A stretch of DNA of 39,029 bases, from NCBI GenBank assembly GCA_913056305.1, contig CAJXMR010000025.1:1-39029 (forward strand). The letters are read 5' to 3'. Below are positions 2,079 through 15,256 of the stretch, piece by piece. The translations under genes were made by a program, and so were the position numbers. The number at the start of each line of letters is the position of its first letter. Position 1 is the first letter of the stretch. Source of the stretch: an uncultured Ralstonia sp. (GTDB lineage: Bacteria; Pseudomonadota; Gammaproteobacteria; Burkholderiales; Burkholderiaceae). Under the pieces are notes generated by a model, which was not told the origin of the DNA, ran no database searches, and saw nothing but the letters and a program-made list of their open reading frames with translations.

Positions 2079-3191
2079 TCAGTCAGTCGGGTTGCGGCGC
2101 GCCAGGATGCGGAGGTCGCCGCCGACGCGCGAGATGTCATGAAAGAAGAATTCGGCCGCGCCCTCGAGCGATTGCAGCGGCCCCATATTGAACATGCCCT
2201 GGCCCGAGCCCAGCACCTTGGGCGCCAGGTAGACGAGGATCTCGTCGACCAGCCCCTCGCGCAGCAGCGAGCCGTTGAGTTTGAAGCCGGCCTCGACGTG
2301 CAGCTCGTTGATCTCGCGGCGGCCGAGCTCGCGCAGCATGGCGGGCAGGTCGACCTTGCCGGCGGCGTTGGGCAGCAGGATGACCTCGGCGCCGTGTTCG
2401 GCCAGGGCGCGCATGCGGCCGGCCTCGGGCTGGGCGGCGAAGATCAGCGTGGGCTCGTGGTGGCCGTCGGCGGTGAGGATGTGGGCGTCGAGCGGCACGT
2501 CCAGCGCCGAGTCGACCAGGATGCGGCGCGGCTGGCGCGGCGTGGGGATGGCGCGCACGGTCAGGCGCGGGTTGTCTTCGCGCACCGTGCCGATGCCGGT
2601 GAGGATCGCGCAGGCGCGCGCGCGCCAGCGGTGGCCGTCGTTGCGCGCCTCGGTTTCCGTGATCCACTGGCTGATGCCGTTGTCGAGCGCCGTGCGGCCG
2701 TCCAGCGAGGCGCCCACCTTCACGCGCACCCACGGCGTGCCGCGCGTCATGCGCGAGACGAAGCCGATGTTCAGCTCGCGTGCCTCGCGCTCGAGCAGGC
2801 CGCAGCGTACGTCGATGCCGGCGTCGCGCAGCTTCTGCAGGCCGCGCCCGGACACGGTGGGGTTGGGATCTTCCATCGCCGCCACCACGCGGGCGATGCC
2901 GGCTTCGACCAGGCGATCCGCGCAGGGCGGGGTGCGGCCGAAGTGGCTGCACGGCTCCAGCGTCACATAGGAGGTGGCGCCGCGCACGTCGTGGCCGCGC
3001 GACTGGGCGTCCTTGATGGCTTGGATCTCGGCATGGTCCTGGCCGGCGGGCTGGGTGTAGCCCTCGCCGATGACGGTGTCGCCCTGGACCAGTACGCAGC
3101 CCACGCGCGGGTTGGGCGTGGTGGTGAAGAGCCCCTTCTCCGCCAGCGCCAAGGCGCGCTGCATCATGGCGTGATCGAAATCGGAAAACAT
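2079..3191 (-). CDS. ribD: Bifunctional pyrimidine deaminase/reductase RibD
   Basis: 370 aa. Residues 1 to about 145 are the zinc-dependent deaminase domain: H53-A-E55 supplies the histidine ligand and catalytic glutamate, and C81 and C90 (PCSHFGRTPPC) complete the zinc site. Residues from about 147 on are the NADPH-dependent reductase domain (VKVGASLDGRTAL, GIGTVREDNPRLTVR, HVEAGFKLNGSLL, APKVLGSG). It carries out the second and third steps of riboflavin synthesis. It is the first rib gene, yet it starts only 24 bp after the stop of a FimT-like pilin gene. That gap is too short for an FMN riboswitch, so transcription from the pilin operon may continue into the rib genes. Confidence 0.96.
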   Translation of the reverse strand: MFSDFDHAMMQRALALAEKGLFTTTPNPRVGCVLVQGDTVIGEGYTQPAGQDHAEIQAIKDAQSRGHDVRGATSYVTLEPCSHFGRTPPCADRLVEAGIARVVAAMEDPNPTVSGRGLQKLRDAGIDVRCGLLEREARELNIGFVSRMTRGTPWVRVKVGASLDGRTALDNGISQWITETEARNDGHRWRARACAILTGIGTVREDNPRLTVRAIPTPRQPRRILVDSALDVPLDAHILTADGHHEPTLIFAAQPEAGRMRALAEHGAEVILLPNAAGKVDLPAMLRELGRREINELHVEAGFKLNGSLLREGLVDEILVYLAPKVLGSGQGMFNMGPLQSLEGAAEFFFHDISRVGGDLRILARRNPTD

Positions 3192-3215
3192 GGGGCAGTG
3201 AAACGGGAAGTGAGG

Positions 3216-3785
3216 TTAGGGGGCGTCGTCGATGCCGTCGGTGCCGCAACTGCTGTCCGAGGCCGGGTTGCATATGCGGGCCCGGCCGGCTCGGTTGATG
3301 CGCACGCGGCGCACGTGCGGGCCGGAAGCGACGGTCAACGTGCCGTACAGCTGTGCATCATTGCTCGTCCGTGAGTATCCCACAGGTGCATACGAAAGGG
3401 TGTCGACGCCTTTTTGCGATGACTTGAACGTAAGCTCCATCGCTGGCACCCCGGGCGGCGAGACCGAGAGCAGCACGTCCTCAGCGCCCGGTGCGAGCGG
3501 TGTGGTTTGTGTTTGCGGCGAGGGCGTCATGTACAGCGCCCATCCGGATGACCAGCCTTCCCCCGCATCTAGCGGGCCGAGGTGGACCCACGCGCGCCGG
3601 TTGCGCGCGGTGACCTGCGCCAGTGAGACGGCACTGGCAAACCGATCAGCCAGCACAATCACCGTCTCGCGCCGCCACCAGTCCAGCGCTGCGGGTGCCG
3701 CGAACACGGCGAGGACCGCCAGCACGGCCACGACGACGATCAGCTCGGCCAACGTGACGCCCGCTTGCGGGTGCGGGCGCGTCAT
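3216..3785 (-). CDS. FimT/GspH-like minor pseudopilin, last gene of the minus-strand pilin operon
   Basis: 189 aa. The N-terminus MTRPHPQAG ends in a prepilin peptidase site at G9/V10, followed by VTLAELIVVVAVLAVLAVF with glutamate at mature position 5. The C-terminal part resembles FimT/GspH/FimU pseudopilins (CNPASDSS cysteine region near the end). The start is chosen at the ATGA overlap with the upstream pilE-like gene; an in-frame ATG also lies 9 bases upstream. FimT-type pilins help prime the pilus and are thought to sit near its tip. In the opposite operon the fimT gene comes first, whereas here it comes last. It could also be called GspH-like. Confidence 0.8.
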   Translation of the reverse strand: MTRPHPQAGVTLAELIVVVAVLAVLAVFAAPAALDWWRRETVIVLADRFASAVSLAQVTARNRRAWVHLGPLDAGEGWSSGWALYMTPSPQTQTTPLAPGAEDVLLSVSPPGVPAMELTFKSSQKGVDTLSYAPVGYSRTSNDAQLYGTLTVASGPHVRRVRINRAGRARICNPASDSSCGTDGIDDAP

Positions 3786-4183
3786 GGCCAGCATGCTGGT
3801 GGCGCCGGCTCGCGTACGCCTGCAGCCTGAATAAAGCGCTCGCCGGTGCTGCGCAGGATCAGCGTACCGCAGCGTGTGTCCGGGCGAGCGGGCTGCGCGA
3901 CAACTTCCATGCATTGCATCAGCGTACGGCCATCGCACCACTGGGCGGACAGTGCGTAGCCGGGCGCGTGTTCCGAGATACCTGAGAAATCGGCGTAGCG
4001 GCCCGAGTGAGCATGGCGCCGTTCCTGTTCCGCCATGGCCGCAACCAGCGCGGCGCGCGCTGACGCCAGCTCGACGCGGTCCCGATGCCGGGTCCACGCC
4101 TGCATCGCCATCACCGTCAGCACGGCTGCGACGGCCAGCGCGATCAGCAGCTCGATCAACGTGAAGGCAGCGGGGCGGCGCAT
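3782..4183 (-). CDS. PilE-like minor pilin with alanine at the -1 cleavage position
   Basis: 133 aa. A short leader MRRPAA is followed by FTLIELLIALAVAAVLTVMA, the class III pilin helix with glutamate at mature position 5. The residue before the cleavage site is alanine (A6) instead of the near-universal glycine, which may slow or alter processing by PilD. The rest resembles a small PilE-family pilin with paired cysteines near the C-terminus (C-G-T-L-I-L and the final ACWP). It shares one base with the short pilY1 gene (TGATG) and overlaps the FimT-like gene by ATGA, so the genes are translationally coupled. Confidence 0.75.
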   Translation of the reverse strand: MRRPAAFTLIELLIALAVAAVLTVMAMQAWTRHRDRVELASARAALVAAMAEQERRHAHSGRYADFSGISEHAPGYALSAQWCDGRTLMQCMEVVAQPARPDTRCGTLILRSTGERFIQAAGVREPAPPACWP

Positions 4184-6024
4184 CAGCGAGCCCCTTCTTC
4201 GATCAACTCGCGCCAGCTCAGGCGGCCGAGCTTGCGCGTCTGCGTGTAGGTTTGCAGGGCCTTGGGCTGGTTGCCGGGCGCGTGCCAGAGCGTGGTCTGG
4301 ACGACCTGCGTGCTGCTGCCGTCCTGGCGTGCGTTGGGCGGCGCGGCCTGCGTCGTAATGAGCGGCGCAGACGCCAGGACGTGACCGGTGCGGCGGCCCT
4401 TGTCGGCGGGCAGGCCGTTGCGCGGGTCAAGCAGATAGGCGCGGATGAGGCCGTCCGCATCGCGGGTGGTCAGGAGCAGGCTGCCGGAGCCGGCGCTGGT
4501 GAGGTCGTCTGGGGTGTGACCGGGTGGCAGATCGATGTGCCAACCCTTGGCGGGCGTGCCATCACTGTCGGGGCGCAGCACCACGCCCTCTGCGACATCA
4601 GCGGCGCTGCGACCGGCCAGGTCGCTACGCGACAGGTTGCGCTGCCCGTTGTCTCGATCGGCGACACCGTAGAGCGTGGCCGATCCGTCGGCATCGACTG
4701 CCGTGAACACGAGCAGTGGCCCGCCGGCGGTGGCCGCCAGCAGGATCGGCCCGACGATGTGCTGCAGTTGACCACGTTGCGACTTCGCGGTGAAGAACGG
4801 TTGGCGCCGTTCGGTTTCGTTGCGGCCGAGCGCCTGCGGCCAGGGCGGTGCGCCGCGCAGGTCAAAGCGCCAGATCTGGCCGTGAGTGTCACCGGCATAG
4901 GCGAAGGTGGCGCGGCCGTCGGGGCCGAGCGCCACAGCTGGCGCCCCCAGCCCGCCGAGGCTGGCGTCTTTCGGCACGGCGATGGTGAAAGCGGTGCGCC
5001 CTGGCTGCCATGCCGACGCGGGCGGCTGGTCCAGCGCCAGTAGCAGCAGGCGGCTTTCCACGCTCGCGTCGCTGCGGCCATTGCCGCTGATGGCAAACCA
5101 GCGCGACTGTATGCCGCTGTCGTCGGCCAGCGGCACGATCGGGATCGGGTCTTCCAGATGGCCGACGGTCGGGTCATCGGTGGCGTCGTAGGCGAGCAGG
5201 GCCCTGGGCGCGGTTGAGGCCGGATCGGACACGTCGACGAGGAACAGGCCCGGTGCCATGGCCCCGTTTGCGCACGCGAGGATGGAGTGCCAGCGCGTGC
5301 CGGTCCAGGCATCGGCGGCGAATGGGCGGCGGCAGACCGGCGCCGGCGGCGATTGCCCGGGTGATGCATCGCGCGCGGCAACGGGCAGCACTGCATCGGA
5401 CATGACGGCAAAGCGCTCCTGGCCGGTCAACGCGTCGAAGCCGTGCAGCATGCCGTCGTTGGCGCCGAGGTAGACCATCCAGGGCCGCCGGGCCGCTTGC
5501 TGCCGGAACGCGGCGTGCCGCGCGTCGAACGCGAAGCCGGGTGGCCCGAGCAGTTGCACGCGGGTGCCACGCATGGCGCCGAGTACCGAAGTGCGCGGGC
5601 GCAGGCGCGGAGGCTGGGTTTCGTGCGTGCGCGCGCCGCGCAGGTAGTCGAGCCGGATGGCGCCGTTGCCATGGGGCGCATCCAGCGCCGCCTGCTGTGC
5701 CGGATCGAGGGCAGCCCAGCGGAGCGGGATGGCGGTACGTGCCGGGGTATGCCCGTGGCCGAACGTCCAGAGTTGCCGCGCATCGGGCGGCAGCGTGTCG
5801 AGCAGGCGCGAGGCTTCCCACAGGTCGGGTGGCAGCGGCGCCTCCAGCGTGCCAAGTGTCGGCGCAAACTGCAGGGCGCGCAGGCGGCCGCTCCAGGCGT
5901 CATCGCCGGGCGCGATGAGCAGGTGCGTGGGCAGATGGCCGGCGGGGGAGTCCGCCGCTGCGGCGGGCATGATGCCGGTCAGCGCCACCGCCATCCATGC
6001 GCAAGCGACTCGCCGGCACGTCAT
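4183..6024 (-). CDS. pilY1: Short PilY1-like protein: C-terminal beta-propeller only
   Basis: 613 aa. The signal peptide is MTCRRVACAWMAVALTGIMP followed by AAAADS. The protein corresponds only to the PilY1 C-terminal half: LDYLRGARTHE, then MVYLGANDGMLHGFDALTG, then YAGDTHGQIWRFDL aligns with the same blocks in the large PilY1 at 10888-14265. It lacks any N-terminal adhesin domain (no lectin and no von Willebrand A domain). The calcium loop that precedes YAGD is degenerate: residues 367-375 read GPDGRATFA where the large copy has four spaced aspartates. The RTR-x-LGDIINSSP motif of the family has also drifted (LGAMRGTRV). It overlaps pilX upstream by ATGA and the pilE-like gene downstream by one base. 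The start is fixed by the ATGA overlap and the signal peptide. Confidence 0.85.
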   Translation of the reverse strand: MTCRRVACAWMAVALTGIMPAAAADSPAGHLPTHLLIAPGDDAWSGRLRALQFAPTLGTLEAPLPPDLWEASRLLDTLPPDARQLWTFGHGHTPARTAIPLRWAALDPAQQAALDAPHGNGAIRLDYLRGARTHETQPPRLRPRTSVLGAMRGTRVQLLGPPGFAFDARHAAFRQQAARRPWMVYLGANDGMLHGFDALTGQERFAVMSDAVLPVAARDASPGQSPPAPVCRRPFAADAWTGTRWHSILACANGAMAPGLFLVDVSDPASTAPRALLAYDATDDPTVGHLEDPIPIVPLADDSGIQSRWFAISGNGRSDASVESRLLLLALDQPPASAWQPGRTAFTIAVPKDASLGGLGAPAVALGPDGRATFAYAGDTHGQIWRFDLRGAPPWPQALGRNETERRQPFFTAKSQRGQLQHIVGPILLAATAGGPLLVFTAVDADGSATLYGVADRDNGQRNLSRSDLAGRSAADVAEGVVLRPDSDGTPAKGWHIDLPPGHTPDDLTSAGSGSLLLTTRDADGLIRAYLLDPRNGLPADKGRRTGHVLASAPLITTQAAPPNARQDGSSTQVVQTTLWHAPGNQPKALQTYTQTRKLGRLSWRELIEEGAR

Positions 6025-6641
6025 GGGCTGGATGCCCCGGGGCGGAACACCGTCTGCAGCACCACGCTGACTTCCGGATCGGCGCCAAAGCCTGCGGCCG
6101 TGATGCGGAACAGGCGGGGCTGCGGCGCGGCGCCGGCCTGTATCCACTGGCCCGGCCGCGCATCGGGAATCGGCTCGATGACGTAGCGTGCACGGTGCGC
6201 GGGATGCCGTGCGCCGACGGCCGAGCCCGTGTCGACTTCCACGCCATGCGAGGTGGCCTCCAGCAGTGTCGCGAGCGCCCACAGCGACTGGCCCGTCAGC
6301 GGTTGACACAGCCCGCGCGCCACACCCTCGCCACACGTGCCGGCAACGAAGCCCGACAACGTGACCGGGTTGAGTGCCGCGATGCGCTCGGGCGAGGGGC
6401 GGGCGGTGCACGGGGCGGCTGAGGGGGTGCCAGTGGCCACGGACAACTCGCATTCGGCGTCCGCCAGCGCCTTTTCAGCGGCCTGCTTGGCGAGCGCGTG
6501 ATCGATCGTCAATCCAGCACGGCGGCGCTGGTCGAGCGCGAGGTGGAGCGCGGCCATGGTCAGCAGGCCGAGCAATGTCACGGCCGCCATCACGATCACC
6601 AGCGAGAAGCCGCGACGGCGGGCGGCCGCGTCATTCAGCAT
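6021..6641 (-). CDS. pilX: PilX-like minor pilin (minus-strand operon)
   Basis: 206 aa. The leader MLNDAAARRRG is cleaved after G11, followed by FSLVIVMAAVTLLGLLTMAA. Mature position 5 is isoleucine, not glutamate, as in other PilX/GspK-type tip pilins. A helical segment with LDQRRRAGLTIDHALAKQAAEKALADAE follows, typical of the PilX N-terminal domain (RDxxLAxxAAEAAL-like). Two cysteine pairs lie in the globular part. The start at 6641 overlaps the end of pilW by 11 bp. Its role is probably to form the pilus-initiating tip complex with PilV, PilW, FimT and PilY1. Confidence 0.8.
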   Translation of the reverse strand: MLNDAAARRRGFSLVIVMAAVTLLGLLTMAALHLALDQRRRAGLTIDHALAKQAAEKALADAECELSVATGTPSAAPCTARPSPERIAALNPVTLSGFVAGTCGEGVARGLCQPLTGQSLWALATLLEATSHGVEVDTGSAVGARHPAHRARYVIEPIPDARPGQWIQAGAAPQPRLFRITAAGFGADPEVSVVLQTVFRPGASSP

Positions 6642-7599
6642 GCGTCGACCTCGCAGGACAGCGGATTGCGCACGCGGATGTGGCGTTGAAGGCGGCGCGG
6701 CGGCGTTGTGTGTTGAATGGGGTGAACTGCCGATCTTGCTTGGTTTCGCCCTCCGCCGGGGGAAGCGCGGGGAAGAGCTTGATTGGTGCTGCGGGTTCGC
6801 CTGCGGCGCTCGGATCGTTGTAGTCACCGCGCACCACGAGCGCGACATGCACGGCCTGTACGCGGTGCCATTGCGTGCGATCGAGCGCGCGGGCGGAGGC
6901 GATTGTGGCCGGTGCGCCGTCGGCCCCGCTGACTGTATACAAGAGCTGCAGGGTTTCGACGCCCCGGACCATGCCGAGCGCGGGCGCGAAATCGGGCTGG
7001 AGCTGCTTCTTGTCGCGCCTGTGGGAGCGGCACATCAGTTGTGGCTCGCTGCTGCCGCTTGCCTGATAGATGTAGAGCAACATGAACCCGGCGCGCGGAT
7101 CGTCCCCGCCGCCCTGGATGCGCTCGGGCACGCCATACCCGGAACAATCGATGACCGTGGTGCCATCCGCGTACCGGCCGTCGGCCTGGCTGCTGCGGCC
7201 ACTGAATCGCACCAGCAAGGCATCGCTTGCTCCGACGACGCCGCGTCCGCAGTGCAGATCGTCTACGGAGAGAGGGGGGCCGCAGTTGTCTGCCCCGAGC
7301 AGCGAGGGCGGCGCACCCGCGTCAGGCCAGCGCCGCATGGGCGACCATGCCGGCGTGTCGGTAATCCAGCCGGCTTGTTGCACCGCAGTGGTGAACAGTT
7401 CCAGCGCCTGCGTGCCGCGATCCTCGATCAACGCTTCGTCAGCAATGCGCTGGTAGCGTGCGCGGGCGAACAGCACAAGTTGCAGCGCAATACCGAGCAC
7501 GATCAGCCCCATCAGCATGCCGACCAGCAACTCGACCAGCGAGGCGCCGCGCGCGGGGCGGAGCGGGCGGCACACCTTAGCGGACGCTTGCGGTTTCAA
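6631..7599 (-). CDS. pilW: PilW-like minor pilin (minus-strand operon)
   Basis: 322 aa. Prepilin site at G18/A19, then ASLVELLVGMLMGLIVLGIALQ with glutamate at mature position 5. The downstream region carries PilW hallmarks: an RGTQALELFTTAVQQAGW segment, a cysteine-rich globular domain (DNCGPPLSVDDLHC) and a VRGVETLQLLYTVSG motif near the C-terminal third. It is larger than its plus-strand counterpart (250 aa) and ends in a basic, low-complexity tail. It overlaps pilV by 23 bp and pilX by 11 bp, so the cluster is a tightly coupled operon. Confidence 0.82.
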   Translation of the reverse strand: MKPQASAKVCRPLRPARGASLVELLVGMLMGLIVLGIALQLVLFARARYQRIADEALIEDRGTQALELFTTAVQQAGWITDTPAWSPMRRWPDAGAPPSLLGADNCGPPLSVDDLHCGRGVVGASDALLVRFSGRSSQADGRYADGTTVIDCSGYGVPERIQGGGDDPRAGFMLLYIYQASGSSEPQLMCRSHRRDKKQLQPDFAPALGMVRGVETLQLLYTVSGADGAPATIASARALDRTQWHRVQAVHVALVVRGDYNDPSAAGEPAAPIKLFPALPPAEGETKQDRQFTPFNTQRRRAAFNATSACAIRCPARSTHAE

Positions 7600-7804
7600 T
7601 GCGTGTCACCTGCGCATGAGCCTCGCTGGACAGCTCGCGGACGGTGTGGACGGTGTGCTCCAACTGGTCGAACGCGACGAAGGTGCCGGCAGCACACAGT
7701 GAAAGCAGTGTGAGCGCGACGAGCGATTCAAGCAGGATGGCGCCGTGCGCCGCGCGGGGATGGGGCGTGCGCGGCGGGCGTTGCGTGGGGCGGCGTGGCG
7801 GCAT
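7577..7804 (-). CDS. Very short PilV-like pilin, mostly N-terminal helix
   Basis: 75 aa. A basic leader of 21 residues ends at G21, followed by AILLESLVALTLLSLCAAGT with glutamate at mature position 5. Only about 54 mature residues remain, enough for the long N-terminal helix but not for a globular head. PilV proteins are normally about 150-190 aa; the plus-strand PilV has 182. The stop codon is clean and the next gene already starts inside this one, so this is a naturally short gene, not an obvious frameshift. It is the first gene of the minus-strand operon. Confidence 0.7.
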   Translation of the reverse strand: MPPRRPTQRPPRTPHPRAAHGAILLESLVALTLLSLCAAGTFVAFDQLEHTVHTVRELSSEAHAQVTRIETASVR

Positions 7805-8407
7805 GGGCGGTTTGGGCGCGGAGGCATCGCAGAACCGCCTTAAGTTAAAAAGAATCGTGCCGTTTTAATGTCATATCTGGTCAATAGACTCCGGCGGTGC
7901 GCAGTCGGCCAGGGGCAACTGCTTTAGCACCGCATGGCGGAGCGTTGTGGCGGCCGCGATCGGTGGTTTTTAACCAACGACCGGTCCGCGGAATGCAACC
8001 GTTTGCCGGGCGCAGTTGACACATTTTGATGAATTCCCCACTATTCTGGGGTTGCACTCTGTGCGCGATTCGTCGCAGCGATGCAAACCGTGCCCCGGGT
8101 GTGGCGCGGGTCCAAGAAATAGAACTCAGCAAAAAACCGGCAGGGCGGACGCAGCCAACTGCGCCGTGACTGCCGAATAAAACCGTCGGGGGTTACATGG
8201 ACAGGGATATTCCGCCTTCAGGGCGGTACGGGCATTTCGTCGGGCGCTTGTCGCACTGACATGGCGGCGCCGGTCCGCACTCACGTTACCGCGCATCAAC
8301 TTCAATCGTCACGCAGCCTCCGGCATCCGCGCCGGGAGGTGGGACGTGGCGATGGCGTCAGCGTTCGTCCTGACGGCGTGTTGCGCGACAGCCAACTAGA
8401 GACAACC
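7805..8407. other. 603-bp divergent intergenic region between the two minor-pilin operons
   Basis: No convincing protein gene is visible. The region must hold the promoters of both operons. It has an AT-rich stretch at 7838-7885, a TTGACA hexamer at 8016-8021, and a small inverted repeat CCCCA-ctattc-TGGGG at 8036-8051. A 20-codon open frame at 8197-8259 begins ATGGACAGGGATATT after a GGGGG run. I see no sigma-54 signature (TGGCAC-N5-TTGC). Confidence 0.6.
8016..8047 (+). promoter_or_regulatory. Candidate promoter for the plus-strand pilin operon
   Basis: A perfect -35 hexamer TTGACA (8016-8021) is followed by AT-rich sequence. The only -10-like options are TATTCT (20-bp spacer) or weaker hexamers at 17-18 bp. 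The small palindrome CCCCA/TGGGG overlaps the -10 region and could be an operator. Low certainty because of the spacing; a transcript from here would have a leader of about 350 nt. Confidence 0.28.
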
Positions 8408-9010
8408 ATGTGGCACCTCAACGGGCGAGGCGGCGTGCGGGGGCGCGCCGCTTGCCTGCATTCGCATCGCATCCACGGCGTCTCGATGGTCGAGCTGCTG
8501 ATCACGCTCGCGATCGTGGCCGTCCTGGCCGTCATCGCCACGCCGTCGTTTGTCGGGATCATCCAGAAGGCCCGGCTGCAGGCGGAGGTGAATTCGCTGG
8601 CCAGCGATCTGCAGTACGCCCGCGCCGAGGCGATCAAGCGTGGCCAGCCGGTCAGCTTGTGCCCGTCGTCCAACGGCACCACGTGCAATACGACCAATCC
8701 CACCTACTGGGAAGCCGGCTGGATCGTCTTCAACGATGTCAACGGCTCGGGCACGACCGATTCCACCAACGATACGCCGCTGCGCGTGCGGGCTCCGCTT
8801 GCGAGTGGAGATACCTTCCGACCCACCCCGTCGGCCCCGGCCTCGGCGGTGACGTATAGCCGCGATGGCTTTGCAACCAACCTGGCCAACGGCACCGTCA
8901 CGATGACGCTGCACAGCTCGCCGCTGAACGACAACGCGACGCGCTGCGTGGCGATCAACCTGGTCGGGCGCCAAGTCGTACAGACAAAGGGGACTGGCTC
9001 ATGCAACTGA
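8408..9010 (+). CDS. fimT: FimT-family minor pilin (plus-strand operon)
   Basis: 200 aa from the ATG at 8408. Prepilin site at G24/V25, then VSMVELLITLAIVAVLAVIA with glutamate at mature position 5, followed by TPSFVGIIQKARLQAEVNSL and LQYARAEAIKRGQPVSLC, the classic GspH/FimT core. The C-terminus has paired cysteines (TRCVAINLVGRQV and the final GSCN). An in-frame start at 8261 would give a 73-residue leader, which is implausible for a prepilin; even 24 residues is long. It is the first gene of the operon and overlaps pilV by 10 bp. Confidence 0.87.
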   Translation: MWHLNGRGGVRGRAACLHSHRIHGVSMVELLITLAIVAVLAVIATPSFVGIIQKARLQAEVNSLASDLQYARAEAIKRGQPVSLCPSSNGTTCNTTNPTYWEAGWIVFNDVNGSGTTDSTNDTPLRVRAPLASGDTFRPTPSAPASAVTYSRDGFATNLANGTVTMTLHSSPLNDNATRCVAINLVGRQVVQTKGTGSCN

Positions 9011-9549
9011 GTATGCAACGGCGCCAGGCTGGCGGGTTCTCGTTGATCGAGGCGCTGATCACCATCGTGGTGGTGGGCGTGGGGCTGATCGGGCTGGCGA
9101 AGATCCAGGCGGCGGCGGTGGGCAATACGCAGATCTCGCGTGTGCGTTCGCTGGTGGCGCTGCAGACGGAGAGCCTGGTGGCCGCCATGCACGGCAATCG
9201 TGCGTTCTGGGCGGTGGCGCTCACGGCCCCAGCAACGTTCAGTGTGAGCGGCACGACGGTCACGGATTCGAACAGCGTGCTCAGCACGACCGTCACGAAA
9301 TGCAAGGGCAGCAAGTGTTCGTCCACCGAGTTGGCCGCCTATGACGTCCAGCAGTGGGCAAAGACGATGAACGCGAACTTTCCGGGCTACACCGCCACCG
9401 GCAACTGCACCACCGTCGTGCCGGTGAACTGCAACATCACCGTGACCTGGATCGAGAAGTACATCGCGGTCAACAGCACGACAGCCTCGGCGGCGGCCGC
9501 GGCCCAGCCGACAACCCAGCAGAGCTACACGGTCTACGTCCTACCATGA
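9001..9549 (+). CDS. pilV: PilV-type minor pilin
   Basis: 182 aa. Prepilin site at G12/F13, then FSLIEALITIVVVGVGLIGL with glutamate at mature position 5, followed by AKIQAAAVGNTQISRVRSLV as in PilV proteins. The head has four cysteines, including a CKGSKC hairpin and the CTTVVPVNC pair. It overlaps fimT by 10 bp and pilW by ATGA. PilV belongs to the priming complex at the pilus tip together with PilW, PilX, FimT/FimU and PilE. This is the normal-length counterpart of the 75-aa gene at 7577-7804. Confidence 0.88.
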   Translation: MQLSMQRRQAGGFSLIEALITIVVVGVGLIGLAKIQAAAVGNTQISRVRSLVALQTESLVAAMHGNRAFWAVALTAPATFSVSGTTVTDSNSVLSTTVTKCKGSKCSSTELAAYDVQQWAKTMNANFPGYTATGNCTTVVPVNCNITVTWIEKYIAVNSTTASAAAAAQPTTQQSYTVYVLP

Positions 9550-10298
9550 GCGGAAAACCGATGACTCCCCGAGTGCAATGGGCGCGCAGGCAGGCCGGCA
9601 CCAGCCTGATCGAGATCCTGATCGCCATGGTGATCGCGCTGTTCATCATGGGCGGCGTGGTGGTGGTGTTCGTGAACATGCAGAAGACGTTCACGAGCCA
9701 GGATCAGCTCTCGCAACTGCAGGACAACGAGCGGCTCGCGCTGACCATCCTGACCAACACGGTGCAGACGGCTGGCTACTTCCCGGATCCGCTGCACTAC
9801 ACGGCGGTGACGGCGCTACCCGCGTCGGGCGTGCTGGCGACGGCCCAGGTGATCTCCGGTACGACCGGTACGGGAACCGGCAGCAACAGCGATACGCTGA
9901 CGGTCCAGTTCGCCACGGCCAGCGGCGACGGCAACATGAACTGCCTGGGCCAGACCAACACCAGTGGCAAGGCGCAGCCGCAGGTGTTCATCAATACGGT
10001 GTCCGTCAGCCCCAACAACGAATTGCAGTGCTCGTTGAATGGACAGGCAGCGGTGCCGCTCGTCAGCGGCGTGTCTGGCTTTCAGGTGCTCTACGGCATC
10101 GATAGTGGTCACAACGGAACGGTCGATTCGTATTGGACCGCTGCGCAGGTCGCGGCGGCGCAAGGGGGGACGGGCGACTGGTCGTCGGTCCACACGGTCC
10201 AGGTCACGCTGACGTTTGCCACGCAGTTCGGCAACCTGGGCGGGTCCACGCAGAACACGCAGTGGACGCAAATGATCAGCCTGAAGAACCAGCCATGA
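9546..10298 (+). CDS. pilW: PilW-type minor pilin
   Basis: 250 aa. The start is set by the ATGA overlap with pilV. Prepilin site at G18/T19, then TSLIEILIAMVIALFIMGGV with glutamate at mature position 5. The segment LQDNERLALTILTNTVQTAG and GYFPDP are typical PilW features. The C-terminal half has VSGVSGFQVLYGID, which also occurs in diverged form in the minus-strand PilW. It overlaps pilX by ATGA. The predicted role is assembly of the tip complex that carries PilY1. Confidence 0.87.
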   Translation: MSGKPMTPRVQWARRQAGTSLIEILIAMVIALFIMGGVVVVFVNMQKTFTSQDQLSQLQDNERLALTILTNTVQTAGYFPDPLHYTAVTALPASGVLATAQVISGTTGTGTGSNSDTLTVQFATASGDGNMNCLGQTNTSGKAQPQVFINTVSVSPNNELQCSLNGQAAVPLVSGVSGFQVLYGIDSGHNGTVDSYWTAAQVAAAQGGTGDWSSVHTVQVTLTFATQFGNLGGSTQNTQWTQMISLKNQP

Positions 10299-10891
10299 GT
10301 GGGACGATGCGTCTTTACAGGATGTCGATCCGCCGAGAGCGTGGGTACACGCTGATTATCGGGCTGCTGCTGCTGCTCGTGCTGACGCTGTTTGCGGTGG
10401 GCATGTTCCGTAGCTCTGGTTTGCAGGAGCGGATTGCCGCTGCCACGCGCGACAAGCAACGCGCGGTCGAGGCGGCACAGAGTGCGCTGCAGTATGGCGA
10501 GTGGTGGCTCCAACTGAACAATGGCGGGGCCGCCGTCAACTGTACGGGCATGGGCGTCAACAGCGCGAACACGCTGGCCAACATGCGGGTGTGCTCGACT
10601 GCGCTGGCCACGCCCACCACGCTGCCCTGGGGCGTGGGATTGGCCTACCAGCCGCCGGCCATGACGGCCAACGGCGGCGGTGGCATGGCCGGGGCGAGTT
10701 CGCCGGCAGGGGACATCAACTACGCGGGCATGCCTGGGCTGTACATCAACTATCTCGGCACGGACCCAACCGGACTGGCGCAGCTTTACCAGGTCACTGC
10801 TTATGGCTATGGCGGTGATGCAACGACAGGGGCAGTGGTGCAGAGCACCTACAAAATTACGCCGGGCACCAAAGATTTGGGGCAACAGTGA
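10295..10891 (+). CDS. pilX: PilX-type minor pilin
   Basis: 198 aa. The leader ends RRERG (G17), followed by YTLIIGLLLLLVLTLFAVGM. Mature position 5 is isoleucine, so the glutamate that pairs with the N-terminus of a neighbouring subunit is missing, as in GspK/PilX tip subunits. SGLQERIAAATRDKQRAVEA is the PilX N-terminal domain signature. The head has two cysteines (NCTGMG and VCSTAL) and glycine-rich loops. It overlaps pilW (ATGA) and pilY1 (4 bp). It is expected at or near the pilus tip next to PilY1. Confidence 0.87.
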   Translation: MSGTMRLYRMSIRRERGYTLIIGLLLLLVLTLFAVGMFRSSGLQERIAAATRDKQRAVEAAQSALQYGEWWLQLNNGGAAVNCTGMGVNSANTLANMRVCSTALATPTTLPWGVGLAYQPPAMTANGGGGMAGASSPAGDINYAGMPGLYINYLGTDPTGLAQLYQVTAYGYGGDATTGAVVQSTYKITPGTKDLGQQ

Positions 10892-13800
10892 TGAAGAAAA
10901 ACCAACGTCTCGTTCTGCTTGCGACTGCCGCGGTGTTGCCGGGTGTCTCGCACGCGCAGCTCGTCATCAGCGATACCCTGACGGGAGCCTCGTCTTCCTA
11001 CAACTGGCAGGCGCTCAATGGTGCCTGCCTGACGGCGGGTGACGGCTCTGGCACGATTCCGGCCTGCGTGGGGCTGAAGTACTACAGCGGCAAGACGCTG
11101 GTGGGCGGCACCGGCGGCCGGTTGCCGGATACCGCGGGTTCGGGGGCGCTACGCCTGACCAACGGGGACACCACGACCGGCACCAACGGCAACAACCAGA
11201 CCGGCGCCGTTGTTTCCAACTTCACCTTTCCGACCAACCAGGGTTTGCAGGTCACGTTCACCACGGTGACGTATGGCGGCAATGCCTATAAGAACTCTTC
11301 CGGCACGCAATCGGGCGCCGACGGCATCAGCTTCTTCCTGGCGGATGGCTCACAACCGGCAACGGTCGGCGCGCTCGGCGGCAGCCTGGGCTACAGCTGC
11401 TCCAACGGCAACTCTACCTACGACGGCGTCGTCGGCGGCTACATTGGTTTGGGCATCGACGAGTACGGCAACTTTTCCAACTCTGGCGACAACACCAATA
11501 CCGGCCCCGGTGCCACCCCCGGCCGTATCAGCCTGCGTGGTGCGGGCAACACCAACTGGGCCAACCTGTCGACCAACTACTCGCAGTACTACCCGACTTC
11601 GGGTATGAGCACGTCGCAGTCCAATGCCGTGCAGAGGACCTGCCGGGCGGGCTACCTGTACAACTACAGCGGCTCCGGGACGTACGACGCGACCGGGAGG
11701 TGGATCAACGACGGCGGCAGGACGTACGAGAAGATCCCTTACAACTACAACTACATTACGGGCGACACGCTCAGCGGCGTGACGCTTTACAGCCAAGAAG
11801 CCACCAACAACCCCGTGCGCGGATCGGCAACGCCCATCACCTACGGGCTCACCATCACGCAGGACGGCTTGTTGAGCCTGTCATACAGCGTGAACGGCGG
11901 GACGGCGCAGCCCGTCATCACGAACCGAAGCATCACCGCGTCGAACGGGCCGCTGCCCTCGTCGTTCCGCTTCGGCTTCTCGGCCGGTACGGGTGGCGGC
12001 AGCAACGTGCATGAAATTACGTGCTTCAAGGCTGCGCCGGTCGGGCAGTCCAGCAGCTCCGCCGGTACCAACGTACAGCAGACCGCGCGTATTGAAGCGG
12101 GTACCCAGCTCTATCTTGCCTACTATCACGCGAACAACTGGTGGGGCGAGCTGACCGCGCAAACCATGGGGGTGGATGCGAAGACGGGTAAGTTCACCAT
12201 CAATACCGCGGCAAACTGGGACGCAAGCTGTACGTTGACGGGGGGGGCTTGCCCGGCGATGAGCTCGACCGCTACCGTTACCGCGCAAACACCCACGGCG
12301 CGCCAGATCCTGACCTGGAGTGGCGCCAGCGGGGTTCCCTTCCAATGGGCGAGCCTGACCTCGGCCCAGCAAACCGCGTTGACCGCCGGCGACGCCAGCG
12401 CCACTGACGCGCGTCTGCAGTATCTGCGCGGCGACCGCACTTACGAAGTCAACAACGGCGGGTCGTTCCGCACCCGCACCGGCGTGTTGGGAGACATCAT
12501 CAACTCCAGCCCCACCTGGGTGGGCGGGCCGTCGGCGCCCTACACCGGCACGTGGAAGGATTCGCTGTATCCCAAAGCCGGGGCGGCCGAGAGTAGCTAC
12601 GCGAGTTTCAAGACCACCAATGGGCAGCGGCTGAATGTGGTGTACCTCGGCTCGAACGACGGCATGCTGCACGGCTTCCGCAGCGGCAGCTACGACGCCA
12701 GCGGCAACTTCGTCGCCAACGCGACCACGCCCAACGACGGGCAGGAAGTACTGGCGTACATGCCAGCCGCGATTCTGAACACCATCCATAGCGGTACGAG
12801 CACCAAGCTGGATTTCAGCTCGCCCTCGTATGCGCACAGCCTGTATGTGGATGCCACGCCCGGCACCGGCGACCTCTACTACAACGGGGCCTGGCATACG
12901 TGGCTCGTAGGCGGCTTGGGCGGTGGCGCGAATGCAGCCGGCCCGATCGGTGACAGCACCAGCACGGGCGCGGGCGCGATCTACGCCCTCGACGTGACCG
13001 ACCCGACCACCTTCAATGAGACCAACGCCAGCAAGTTGGTGATTGGCGAGTGGACGCCTTCGACGATCTCCTGCGCCAACTACACCACCACCAGCTGCGG
13101 CGGCTACCTCGGCAACACCTATGGCACACCGGTCATCCGCCGCCTTCACAATGGTAGCTGGGCGGTGCTGTTCGGCAACGGTCTGAACAGCCAGAACGGA
13201 ACGGCCGGGATGTACATCATGCTGGTCGACTCGACCAGTGGGAACGTCACGTTCCGCTACCTGGATACGGGCTATGGTCCGAGCCAGGACCCCACCGGCA
13301 ACAGCAACAAGAACGGCATCGCGTATGTGACCCCCGCCGACTTGGACGGCGACCACATTACCGACTACGTCTACGCGGGCGACGCCTTTGGGAACATCTG
13401 GCGTTTTGATCTGACCTCGCAGGACCCCGCGTTGTGGAGCGTGTCGTCGGGGCCCCTGTTCTCGACATCGGCGGGTCAACCCATCACCAGCAAGGTCGTC
13501 GTGGCGTCGATTCCCGGTGTCGGTTCGGTTTCCGCCTACCCGCGTGTGCTGGTCAGCTTCGGCACCGGCCAGGCCTTCCCGGCGACCCTCACCAGCCCGG
13601 CCACCTATGCGAGCACAGGCCAGGCCCTCTATGGTGTCTGGGACTGGGACATGCAGGCCTGGAACGCGATGGCTCCCGCGGGCGCGCGATACACATCGCT
13701 CGCTGGGCCGCAAAACGTAATCACCGCGTCTTCGCTGTTACAACAAAGCATCACGGCCGACGTAGCGGCCACGGCAACGACGGTGGCGCAGCGGGTTGTG

Positions 13801-14265
13801 AGTAGCTACCCGGTGTGCTGGCAAGGGTCCACGGCGTGCAAGGGGGTGAACAATCAGTGGGGTTGGACATTGCCGTTGCCCACCGGGAAAAACGAGCAGG
13901 TGGTCTACAACCCGGTCCTGCAGTTCGGCGTGTTTAACGTCAATACGATCATCCCCGCCGTTCAGCAGATACTGTCCTGCAGCGCAACGCCGGCCTCCGG
14001 TTACTCAATGGGCGTCTCCGTTGCGAACGGCGGTGCGACAACCAACCCGTATTTCCTTGACGCCAACGGCAAATACCTTACCGTGAACGGTACTGGGGTC
14101 AGCGGCGTCGGTTTCAGCGGGACGGGTACGTCGTCGTTTGTGTCTATCGGTAATGGCCAGTATCAGATGGTGACGCAGAGTGCGGATAACACGCCGAAAA
14201 ACATTGGAGTCAACCCGAACGCCGCCGGTGTGGGCTCGCGCCTGAACTGGGTCAAGCTGCGCTAA
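10888..14265 (+). CDS. pilY1: PilY1-type pilus-tip adhesin with N-terminal L-type lectin domain
   Basis: 1125 aa. The signal peptide ends GVSHA-Q (about residues 1-23). Residues about 25-390 look like an L-type (legume-lectin-like) domain: GADGISFFLADG (143-154), GGSLGYSC, GVVGGYIGLGIDEYGN (180-195, with the D/N spacing used for metal binding in such lectins) and a last strand FRFGFSAGTGGGSNVHEITC. Residues about 395-1060 are the PilY1 C-terminal region: LQYLRGDRTYE, RTRTGVLGDIINSSPTWVG, VYLGSNDGMLHGF, and the beta-propeller with a calcium loop D818-x-D820-x-D822-x3-D826 just before YAGDAFGNIWRFDL. No von Willebrand A metal site (DxSxS) is seen in the N-terminal part. It should sit at the pilus tip and bind glycans; that binding is an inference from the fold signature. 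Confidence 0.92.
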   Translation: MMKKNQRLVLLATAAVLPGVSHAQLVISDTLTGASSSYNWQALNGACLTAGDGSGTIPACVGLKYYSGKTLVGGTGGRLPDTAGSGALRLTNGDTTTGTNGNNQTGAVVSNFTFPTNQGLQVTFTTVTYGGNAYKNSSGTQSGADGISFFLADGSQPATVGALGGSLGYSCSNGNSTYDGVVGGYIGLGIDEYGNFSNSGDNTNTGPGATPGRISLRGAGNTNWANLSTNYSQYYPTSGMSTSQSNAVQRTCRAGYLYNYSGSGTYDATGRWINDGGRTYEKIPYNYNYITGDTLSGVTLYSQEATNNPVRGSATPITYGLTITQDGLLSLSYSVNGGTAQPVITNRSITASNGPLPSSFRFGFSAGTGGGSNVHEITCFKAAPVGQSSSSAGTNVQQTARIEAGTQLYLAYYHANNWWGELTAQTMGVDAKTGKFTINTAANWDASCTLTGGACPAMSSTATVTAQTPTARQILTWSGASGVPFQWASLTSAQQTALTAGDASATDARLQYLRGDRTYEVNNGGSFRTRTGVLGDIINSSPTWVGGPSAPYTGTWKDSLYPKAGAAESSYASFKTTNGQRLNVVYLGSNDGMLHGFRSGSYDASGNFVANATTPNDGQEVLAYMPAAILNTIHSGTSTKLDFSSPSYAHSLYVDATPGTGDLYYNGAWHTWLVGGLGGGANAAGPIGDSTSTGAGAIYALDVTDPTTFNETNASKLVIGEWTPSTISCANYTTTSCGGYLGNTYGTPVIRRLHNGSWAVLFGNGLNSQNGTAGMYIMLVDSTSGNVTFRYLDTGYGPSQDPTGNSNKNGIAYVTPADLDGDHITDYVYAGDAFGNIWRFDLTSQDPALWSVSSGPLFSTSAGQPITSKVVVASIPGVGSVSAYPRVLVSFGTGQAFPATLTSPATYASTGQALYGVWDWDMQAWNAMAPAGARYTSLAGPQNVITASSLLQQSITADVAATATTVAQRVVSSYPVCWQGSTACKGVNNQWGWTLPLPTGKNEQVVYNPVLQFGVFNVNTIIPAVQQILSCSATPASGYSMGVSVANGGATTNPYFLDANGKYLTVNGTGVSGVGFSGTGTSSFVSIGNGQYQMVTQSADNTPKNIGVNPNAAGVGSRLNWVKLR

Positions 14266-14267
14266 TC

Positions 14268-14747
14268 ATGAAACGACATTCGACGTCCGTGCTCTCGAAG
14301 CGCACCACCGGCTTCACGCTGATCGAGCTGATGATCACGGTGGCGATCATCGCCATCCTGGCCCGCATCGCCTATCCGTCGTACCAGCAATACATCCTCA
14401 AATCACACCGCGCGGATGCGAAGACGGCGCTGCTGGATCTGGCGACGCGGCAAGAGCGGCTGTTCACGCTGCAGAATACCTACACCACCGTGCCGGCTTC
14501 GCTGGGCTATGCCGCCGCCAGCTTCCCGTTTGCCATCCAGTCGGGCACGCAGTCGTACTACCAGCTGTATGTCACGCTGACAGGCACGCCGGGCGGGACA
14601 GGCGCTTCAGCGCCTGGCTATTCCGCCTCGGCTGTTAACGTCGGCCCGCAGACGGCAGACGGATGCGGGGCGTACACCATCAACCAGCTCGGCGTGCAAG
14701 GCAATACCGGCATGGCCACCGGCACCACCACTGCGCAGTGCTGGTAA
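14268..14747 (+). CDS. pilE: PilE-type minor pilin
   Basis: 159 aa. Prepilin site at G15/F16, then FTLIELMITVAIIAILARIA and AYPSYQQYILKSHRADAKTA, the standard PilE/ComP N-terminus with glutamate at mature position 5 and the conserved proline kink. A C-terminal disulfide is likely between DGCGAYTI and the final QCW. It starts 2 bp after pilY1 and closes the plus-strand operon before a strong terminator. By position it is the PilE-like minor pilin that links the tip complex to the major pilin, not the major pilin itself. Confidence 0.87.
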   Translation: MKRHSTSVLSKRTTGFTLIELMITVAIIAILARIAYPSYQQYILKSHRADAKTALLDLATRQERLFTLQNTYTTVPASLGYAAASFPFAIQSGTQSYYQLYVTLTGTPGGTGASAPGYSASAVNVGPQTADGCGAYTINQLGVQGNTGMATGTTTAQCW

Positions 14748-14791: not shown

Positions 14792-15256
14792 TCATTTACG
14801 CGCCGGCGTGGCCGCAACCTCATCCAGCACGTCGCGAAACTCCGCCAGATCCTCAAAGCTTCGGTACACCGACGCAAAGCGGATGTAGCCGATCTTGTCC
14901 AGCCGTTTGAGCTCACGCATCACCAGTTCGCCCACGCGGTCGCTGCCGATTTCCTTTTCGCCGTGGGCAAGCAGTTTTTCTTCGATGCGTGCGATGGCCT
15001 CATCAATGGCCTCGGCGGACACGGGCCGCTTGCGCAGCGCCAGGCGCATGGAATCCTTGACCTTGTTGCGGTCGTAATCGACGCGGCTGCCGTTCTTTTT
15101 GACGACGGCGGGGAAGAACAGCTCGATGCGTTCGTAGGTCGTGAAGCGGCGGTCGCAGGACTCGCAGCGGCGGCGCCGGCGCACGGTGTCGCCTTCCTCC
15201 GACATGCGGGTATCAATCACCTGGGTGGCCGCGTGGCCGCAAAACGGGCATTTCAT
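14792..15256 (-). CDS. nrdR: Transcriptional repressor NrdR of ribonucleotide reductase genes
   Basis: 154 aa. The N-terminal zinc ribbon has C3-P-F-C6 and C31-E-S-C34, followed by [10 protein letters not shown]. The ATP-cone domain spans about residues 49-139 ([20 protein letters not shown]). NrdR senses ATP/dATP and represses nrd operons through NrdR boxes. It lies downstream of glyA, 124 bp away, probably in the same transcription unit. Length and motifs are canonical. Confidence 0.97.

What the first reader, a model, noticed from the sequence alone, without database searches (positions are those of the whole stretch)
3216..14747. Two complete, divergent minor-pilin/PilY1 operons side by side
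Seen: each strand carries PilV, PilW, PilX, PilY1, PilE-like and FimT-like genes, tightly overlapped, diverging from a 603-bp region. The two sets are strongly diverged and differ in the place of fimT (first on plus, last on minus). Known: one such set normally primes type IV pili and displays PilY1 at the tip. Inference: the cell can build pili with two different tips, or one set serves another machine or condition.
Basis: partly seen in the sequence, partly recalled or inferred. Interest (0 to 1): 0.7.

Follow-up and report, generated by a model that had tools for sequence, protein, structure and literature searches.

The report
Two alternative pilus-tip gene sets
Side by side, this Ralstonia genome carries two sets of genes for the tip of its retractable pili: one looks built for sticking to surfaces and is swapped between species, the other carries the signature of a DNA-catching tip and, in some relatives, has lost the usual tip protein except for its last segment, which is fused onto a neighbouring pilin.

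Summary
In detail: two open, overlapping, strongly diverged minor-pilin/PilY1 operons diverge from exactly 603 bp, between ribD and nrdR. The genome is Ralstonia; all 16 held Ralstonia genomes have the ribD-side (minus) set. The sets are not equivalent. The nrdR-side (plus) set has a FimU-like first gene and a long PilY1 whose N-terminal domain differs between species. The minus set is streamlined: a 75-aa PilV, and a PilY1 without N-terminal adhesin domain or acidic calcium loop. Its last gene is a FimT with the C-terminal GRxR DNA-binding motif (ribD-side 28 of 28; FimU-like class 0 of 23). In 7 of 16 Ralstonia the minus PilY1 is gone except its C-terminal 62-67 residues, fused in frame to PilX. 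Others model that end, in Myxococcus, as a strand added to PilX. The fusion changes once on the operon trees but six times on the rpoB tree, and each operon is exchanged on its own. Best reading: one pilus machine with alternative tips, an adhesive plus tip and an adhesin-poor minus tip, probably for DNA uptake. Multiple tip sets are known (Xylella, Myxococcus); the fusion and the Ralstonia FimT assignment appear new. Function is inferred; nothing was tested at the bench.

The parts
3216..3794 (-). FimT of the minus set (last gene); GRxR (GRAR) at about 3276-3287
   Evidence: Pfam GspH and N_methyl over cut-off; GRxR in 28 of 28 ribD-side FimTs; residues G169, R170, R172 invariant in 28 rows
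3782..4183 (-). PilE-like pilin of the minus set; Ala instead of Gly before the cleavage site
   Evidence: Pfam N_methyl over cut-off, ComP_DUS below cut-off; Ala at -1 in 13 of 16 Ralstonia
4183..6024 (-). Short PilY1 (613 aa), propeller region without N-terminal adhesin domain and without acidic calcium loop
   Evidence: Pfam T4P_PilY1 37 bits over cut-off 28.1; no Dx[DN]x[DN]xxxD loop in 21 of 21 ribD-side PilY1s, against 16 of 30 other PilY1-like frames with it
4186..4371 (-). C-terminal 62 residues of the short PilY1 (ends LGRLSWRELIEEGAR); the part kept as a fusion to PilX in 7 of 16 Ralstonia
6021..6641 (-). PilX of the minus set
   Evidence: Pfam PilX C-term over cut-off; no Glu at +5
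6631..7599 (-). PilW of the minus set
   Evidence: Pfam PilW over cut-off; 16 of 16 Ralstonia genomes have it
7577..7804 (-). Mini-PilV, 75 aa, prepilin leader plus helix, no room for a globular domain
   Evidence: found in 16 of 16 Ralstonia; median dN/dS 0.45 over 119 of 120 pairs
7805..8407 (.). 603-bp divergent intergenic region
   Evidence: no sigma-70-type consensus site found by the scan
8408..9010 (+). FimU-like first pilin of the plus set (no GRxR)
   Evidence: Pfam GspH 88 bits; 0 of 23 proteins of this class have GRxR
9001..9549 (+). PilV of the plus set
   Evidence: NCBIfam type_IV_pilV 51.8 bits, cut-off 52.2
9546..10298 (+). PilW of the plus set
   Evidence: Pfam PilW
10295..10891 (+). 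PilX of the plus set
   Evidence: Pfam PilX_N and PilX over cut-off
10888..14265 (+). Long PilY1 (1125 aa) with type-A N-terminal domain, possibly an L-type-lectin-like adhesin
   Evidence: Pfam T4P_PilY1 115 bits at residues 534-923; a type-A relative (L040) matches Pfam Lectin_L-type_dom at E 1.5e-6, far below the curated cut-off; the window domain itself matches no Pfam family and no solved structure by sequence
14268..14747 (+). PilE of the plus set
   Evidence: Pfam ComP_DUS 65.6 bits, over cut-off

Best explanation
One type IVa pilus machine is primed by alternative tip complexes. The plus operon encodes an adhesive tip: FimU-PilV-PilW-PilX capped by a full PilY1 whose N-terminal adhesin domain is the part that varies between species. 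The minus operon encodes a reduced tip: mini-PilV, PilW, PilX, FimT and a PilY1 cut down to its propeller. There FimT carries the GRxR arginines that bind DNA in Legionella, Xylella and Vibrio, so this tip most likely serves DNA capture for natural transformation. In this tip PilY1 is needed mainly for its C-terminal strand, which completes the PilX fold; that is why, in one lineage of the operon, everything but this tail was lost and the tail was fused to PilX through a flexible linker. Shown here: the two gene sets, their open frames and selection, the GRxR split, the lost domains, the fusion, its single change on the operon trees and the exchange of operons between species. Inferred: sharing of one machine, DNA binding, strand docking in cis, and use under different conditions.
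For: Single PilM in the held assembly, and ComEC-family matches that look like one gene split over two contigs. GRxR in 34 of 34 minus-class FimTs and 0 of 23 FimU-like ones; by position 28 of 28 ribD-side FimTs (listing). Of the four GspH-fold pilins found in this genome only the minus FimT has it. The minus PilY1 lacks the N-terminal domain and the calcium loop. The fusion is open in 7 of 16 Ralstonia; its last 16 codons are constrained (pooled pN/pS 0.26) while the linker is much less so (0.71). The end motif GRxxWRE closes 21 of 21 ribD-side short PilY1s and 5 of 7 fusions, the other two fusions differing by one residue; among 29 long PilY1s, 12 end in GRxxWRE or GRxxWRQ. Others modelled a PilY1 C-terminal strand added to PilX in Myxococcus (PMC11046646 passages; PMC13190605 passages). 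DNA role of FimT GRxR: PMC8897410, PMC9956873, PMC12040237, passages read.
Against: No DNA binding, transformation, expression or structure was tested. GRxR is short, and in Streptococcus the equivalent residues alone matter little. The minus FimT has no significant match among solved structures; the weak ones (E 0.06 or worse) are mostly pilin N-termini. The GRxR classes were first drawn by best BLAST hit, which the motif itself may favour; the position-based count does not have this weakness. Both AlphaFold jobs failed (mean pLDDT 29 and 31), so strand docking is not shown here. Loss of the calcium loop is not special to this set: 14 of 30 other PilY1-like frames lack it too. The type-A plus PilY1s, the window's among them, have only a looser form of the end motif, and the third-set ones none. 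In Xylella one operon's mutants lose twitching and much of competence and the other's vary, so a clean split of functions is not guaranteed. G123 has only the ribD-side set at this locus, although it has another PilY1 on contig C66.
Confidence: 0.55

Rival explanations
1. The two sets are alternative tips for different surfaces or growth conditions, as in Myxococcus, and the minus set has no special role in DNA uptake.
For: Myxococcus xanthus has three minor-pilin/PilY1 clusters of which two each suffice for motility (PMC7541494, passages); its cluster-1 PilY1 depends on calcium and on a helper at low calcium (PMC8833165, passages). The minus PilY1 lacks the calcium loop, which might suit low calcium (inference).
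Against: The minus PilY1 has no adhesin domain, and in 7 of 16 species no propeller either, odd for an adhesive tip. GRxR is invariant in the ribD-side FimT while the rest diverges to about 31% identity.
Confidence: 0.25
2. Products of both operons mix into one composite tip: the minus FimT, PilE and mini-PilV add to the plus FimU-PilV-PilW-PilX-PilY1.
For: One PilM was found; the minus set has no FimU-like gene and a PilV without globular domain.
Against: The two operons are exchanged between species independently, and the plus types A, B and C each occur with both minus types, which argues against tight co-adaptation of mixed subunits. Each set has its own PilW, PilX and PilE.
Confidence: 0.12
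3. The minus set serves another machine, such as type II secretion.
For: Minor pseudopilins resemble minor pilins.
Against: The type II secretion cluster on contig C37 has its own pseudopilins: GspG and GspI over the NCBIfam cut-off, GspH and GspJ as best match below it. The minus set has PilY1, PilW and PilX family members.
Confidence: 0.03
4. The minus set is a decaying remnant, and the PilX fusion a step of that decay.
For: PilV and PilY1 are shortened; operon genes evolve fast, and the fusion linker is weakly constrained (0.71).
Against: Open frames in 16 of 16 Ralstonia; median dN/dS 0.20-0.45; the fused allele is found in seven species scattered over the rpoB tree and its last 16 codons are constrained.
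Confidence: 0.03

Closest known systems
Xylella fastidiosa paralogous minor-pilin/PilY1 operons with FimT3 as DNA receptor (PMC9956873, passages read)
   Same: Two sets of pilEVWX, fimT and pilY1 in one genome, with mostly opposing phenotypes; a FimT with GRxR is the DNA receptor while the other two FimTs are not.
   Different: In Xylella the paralogues are mostly organised as operons in two different genome regions; the passages I saw mention no PilX-PilY1 fusion or mini-PilV.
Myxococcus xanthus minor-pilin/PilY1 clusters 1-3 (PMC7541494, PMC8833165, PMC11046646, PMC13190605, passages read)
   Same: Several tip sets on one pilus machine; PilY1 N-terminal domains differ; the PilY1 C-terminal strand is modelled as added to PilX.
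   Different: Each Myxococcus cluster encodes PilY1 and FimU, PilV, PilW and PilX; the passages I saw describe no set reduced to a tail fused on PilX.
Competence pilus tip of Vibrio cholerae with FimT (PMC12040237, passages read)
   Same: FimT with G[RK]x[RK] needed for DNA binding; deleting FimT also nearly abolishes pili.
   Different: The Ralstonia set still carries PilY1, or its tail, and PilE; that the Vibrio set lacks PilY1 is recalled, not from a call.
Neisseria PilC1/PilC2 (recalled; mentioned in PMC13190605 passages)
   Same: Two PilY1-family tip proteins in one cell with different adhesion roles.
   Different: Not two whole divergent minor-pilin operons (recalled).

Membership tests
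Type IVa minor-pilin/PilY1 operon (both sets) | PilV, PilW, PilX, PilY1, PilE and FimU or FimT in one operon | tested here: met
   Pfam/NCBIfam matches; order and overlaps. Weak spots: minus PilV and minus PilE are recognised by N-terminus and position, and plus PilV is just under its cut-off
Type IVa minor-pilin/PilY1 operon (both sets) | Prepilin cleavage motif in each pilin | tested here: inconclusive
   Motifs seen in the minus pilins, but PilE has Ala at -1 in 13 of 16 Ralstonia and PilX lacks Glu+5; processing not testable
PilY1 (minus 613-aa protein) | C-terminal propeller domain PF05567 | tested here: met
   37 bits against cut-off 28.1
PilY1 (minus 613-aa protein) | EF-hand-like calcium loop | tested here: not met
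   No acidic loop in 21 of 21 ribD-side PilY1s; 14 of 30 other PilY1-like frames lack it too, so it is not a strict mark of the family
PilY1 (minus 613-aa protein) | Variable N-terminal adhesin domain | tested here: not met
   Only the signal peptide and, by comparison with the plus protein, roughly 110 residues before the propeller
FimT DNA-receptor pilin (minus last gene) | GspH fold with C-terminal GRxR | tested here: met
   Pfam GspH 33.2 bits, cut-off 21; GRxR 28 of 28
FimT DNA-receptor pilin (minus last gene) | Binds DNA and is needed for transformation | not testable with these tools
   Needs bench work
Type II secretion pseudopilins (minus set) | Located with gsp genes, or sole pseudopilins of the genome | tested here: not met
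   Separate GspG-H-I-J on C37
L-type lectin (plus PilY1 N-terminal domain, type A) | Match to Lectin_L-type_dom over the curated cut-off | tested here: not met
   Relative L040 28.7 bits against 78.3; no match for the window or L004 domain

The most novel reading that the evidence does not exclude
Ralstonia maintains an adhesin-free, DNA-catching pilus tip next to exchangeable adhesive tips, and in one operon lineage the whole PilY1 tip protein has been replaced by its own C-terminal strand fused to PilX. That would be a natural experiment showing that the only part of PilY1 needed to prime a type IVa pilus is the strand that completes PilX, the rest being cargo.
Probability: 0.4. Interest if true: 0.75.

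Novelty: new variant of a known kind. Interest (0 to 1): 0.55.

Why it matters
It names a candidate DNA receptor pilin for Ralstonia. In the passages of the R. solanacearum paper that I saw, transformation is tied to pilA and the pilus chemotaxis genes, and minor pilins come up only for another species (PMC7056806). The FimT survey describes GRxR FimTs for Gammaproteobacteria and some Hydrophilales (PMC8897410). The PilX-PilY1-tail fusion turns a modelling prediction, PilX completed by a PilY1 strand, into something testable with natural proteins. Independent exchange of two tip operons at one chromosomal site suggests that pilus tips evolve as swappable cassettes.

Tried and rejected

The first rpoB tree was wrong: for 13 of 16 rows my script took a longer antisense frame, as the long branch between them and the other three showed. 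I replaced it by choosing the frame with rpoB signatures; only one search is used for rpoB. The ribD and operon trees are not affected.

An earlier count gave 35 of 35 and 0 of 25 for GRxR; the checked counts are 34 of 34 and 0 of 23.

Nine third-set or other loci were not read by my motif script (empty rows); for the third set I rely on the three loci (none with GRxR). L137 was fetched and not analysed.

I looked for the fusion outside Ralstonia: of 399 genomes of the order (the window's the only Ralstonia), the fused protein P0012 matched in 15; no match outside the window's genome extended through the tail. A diverged fusion could be missed.

Considered and rejected: type II pseudopilins, decay, plain sigma-70 promoters in the gap (none). 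The L-type lectin reading of the plus adhesin is left open.

Genus: Ralstonia rests on G105 having a contig of the same length, with the matching region, as the named record Ralstonia sp. SET104. That g3 is Cupriavidus is recalled guesswork; no call names it.

Full report
Where it is. The window is a contig of a 5.47-Mb draft assembly in 411 contigs, 88% complete. Its genus is Ralstonia, judged from G105, whose contig has the same length and holds the same region as the named record Ralstonia sp. SET104. The locus lies between ribD (2079-3191, same direction as the minus set, 24 bp downstream) and nrdR (14792-15256, facing the plus set).

The observation. Both operons are present and open, with small overlaps inside each and a 603-bp gap between them. 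Family searches support the assignments, with minus PilV and PilE the weakest. Corresponding proteins of the two sets are 23-36% identical over the aligned parts; the two PilVs did not match each other. The minus set has a 75-aa PilV with no room for a globular domain and a 613-aa PilY1 against 1125 aa on plus. By comparison with the plus protein, roughly 110 residues lie between the minus signal peptide and the propeller (an estimate), so there is no N-terminal adhesin domain. The acidic calcium loop (relaxed pattern Dx[DN]x[DN]xxxD before the conserved tryptophan strand) is absent in 21 of 21 ribD-side PilY1s (9 Ralstonia, 12 other genomes) and present in 16 of 30 other PilY1-like frames of these loci; types A and B on the plus strand have it, types C and D and the third set do not.

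Not a remnant. In the genus, 16 of 16 held genomes have the minus PilW, and all 16 loci were read: an open frame for each minus gene is found in each, with the PilX-PilY1 fusion in seven. Median dN/dS: short PilY1 0.20 (36 of 36 pairs of nine genomes), PilW 0.28 (118 of 120), PilE 0.32 (112 of 120), FimT 0.36 (120 of 120), mini-PilV 0.45 (119 of 120); in the seven fused genomes the PilX part gives 0.24 and the whole tail 0.49 (21 of 21 each). For comparison, type-A plus PilY1 gives 0.12 (15 of 15) and ribD 0.03 (120 of 120). So the set evolves fast but under constraint.

Two kinds of FimT. Braus et al. showed that FimT binds DNA through C-terminal arginines; their alignments show a GRxR motif that is less well defined in FimU (PMC8897410, passages). 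Merfa et al. showed DNA binding for FimT3 of Xylella but not for its paralogues FimT1 and FimT2 (PMC9956873, passages). The motif is needed in Vibrio but matters little by itself in Streptococcus (PMC12040237, passages). In my loci, all 34 ORFs whose best reference hit is the minus FimT have GRxR in the last 60 residues, and none of 23 whose best hit is the plus FimU-like protein; by position, 28 of 28 ribD-side FimTs have it. In an alignment of these 28, 16 columns are invariant, the G, R and R of the motif among them. In the window's genome four GspH-fold pilins are found; only the minus FimT has GRxR. One of the others is in the type II secretion cluster, where GspG and GspI pass NCBIfam cut-offs and GspH and GspJ are best matches below them. 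Across 399 genomes of the order, 17 of the 30 best-matching FimT loci fetched have GRxR, two loci not being readable by my script; the window's own and two other already counted genomes are among the 30. So the class is not confined to Ralstonia.

The fusion. In 7 of 16 Ralstonia (G024, G058, G067, G113, G121, G137, G151) the minus PilY1 is gone except for its C-terminal part, 62-67 residues, which continues the PilX frame. The other nine, the window included, have PilY1 of about 613 aa whose extrapolated start overlaps the PilX stop by a few bases. The tail is a variable linker (pooled pN/pS 0.71) followed by 16 constrained codons (0.26) encoding LGRLSWRELIEEGLR or the like. GRxxWRE closes 21 of 21 ribD-side short PilY1s and 5 of 7 fusions; G058 (GPLNWRE) and G137 (GRLSWLE) each differ by one residue. 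Of 29 long PilY1s, 12 end in GRxxWRE or GRxxWRQ; type A and C proteins have looser versions and the three third-set ones have none. Treuner-Lange et al. modelled an eight-residue C-terminal strand of PilY1 added to the PilX sheet (PMC11046646, passages), and a 2026 survey reports it in four modelled complexes (PMC13190605, passages). The fusion is what one would expect if that strand is the indispensable part; this is inference, since my own structure jobs failed. In 399 genomes of the order no other fusion was seen.

History. On trees of PilW, PilX, PilE and FimT the fused state changes once. On the concatenated set the fused clade has full support, with the window's operon, still carrying PilY1, as its sister; the root there was set by me on the other eight full operons. 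With an outside root, the FimT and PilX trees put the window with the fused group (98/95 and 90/87), the PilE tree puts it in an unresolved fork with that group, and the PilW tree puts it with the other full operons, with G113 at their base. On the species side the fused genomes are scattered: 6 changes on the rpoB tree (6 of 13 inner branches well supported), and one clade is rejected (AU p 1.7e-121); 7 changes on the ribD tree. DNA identities show why, in three of nine pairs that I picked and compared. G024 and G058 are 92% identical in ribD but 93-99% in the minus genes and 48-54% in the plus genes. G024 and G129 are 98% and 97% in ribD and nrdR but 48-64% in both operons. G096 and G024 share the plus set (89-94%) but not the minus set (55-64%). 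Other pairs share both sets (G067 and G151) or sit in between (G087 and G144). So each operon can move on its own. The plus cassette falls into types A (6 genomes), B (4), C (5) and D (1), assigned by me from the BLAST tables, with 10 changes on the rpoB tree. N-terminal PilY1 parts of A, B and C/D are unrelated by BLAST apart from a stretch of A and B next to the propeller, while the propeller parts match (the cut for C and D was arbitrary). A type-A relative has a sub-threshold match to L-type lectin. The nrdR-side set lies in the same orientation as the minus set in 8 of 28 loci (G077, G004, G002, G131, G089, G069, G098, G107); the first five of these have a second GRxR FimT, which looks like tandem duplication. 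In G123 the nrdR-side set is lost.

How it works, most likely. One type IVa machine (one PilM found) is primed by either tip. The plus tip carries an exchangeable adhesin. The minus tip has shed adhesin, calcium loop and the PilV globular domain, keeps a FimT of the DNA-binding class, and in one lineage keeps only the PilY1 end on PilX. Natural transformation through type IV pili is known in R. solanacearum (PMC7056806, passages), and ComEC-family sequence is present here. A PilX gene of R. solanacearum is reported under balancing selection (PMC6580516, passages), which would fit operon exchange, but I could not tell whether it is this PilX.

Novelty. Multiple tip sets are known, so this is a variant of a known kind. 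Searches for Ralstonia with PilY1 (25 of 34 papers listed), for PilX-PilY1 fusions (4 listed), for Ralstonia with FimT and minor pilin (9 listed), and for Burkholderiaceae pilin terms (3 listed) showed no paper that by title or start of abstract describes this locus, the fusion or a FimT DNA receptor in Ralstonia; I read passages only from the papers cited. The library holds open-licence papers only.

Noticed in passing
G000:C132, L025 6089-12625: A third minor-pilin set (PilE, FimU-like, PilW, a PilX candidate and PilY1 of another type) lies on another contig; its FimT-like protein has no GRxR.
   Followed up: partly
3782-4183: The minus PilE has Ala instead of Gly before the prepilin cleavage site in 13 of 16 Ralstonia; it may be cleaved slowly or not at all.
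   Followed up: partly
7577-7804: Mini-PilV of about 75 aa in all 16 Ralstonia; the 12 other genomes have frames of 116-172 aa (stop to stop) in the same place, so PilV seems to have lost its head in Ralstonia.
   Followed up: partly
3192-3215: Only 24 bp separate minus fimT from ribD in the same direction; riboflavin genes may be read through from the pilin operon.
   Followed up: no
L082: G123 has lost the nrdR-side set and keeps a FimT fragment with GRVR next to nrdR.
   Followed up: partly
10954-12099: Type-A PilY1 N-terminal domain shows lectin-like motifs to my eye; a relative matches L-type lectin at E 1.5e-6, below cut-off, the window's own domain matches nothing.
   Followed up: partly
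L146-L153 and others: GRxR FimTs occur in other families of the order (17 of 30 best loci), a group for which the FimT survey passages that I saw name no members.
   Followed up: partly
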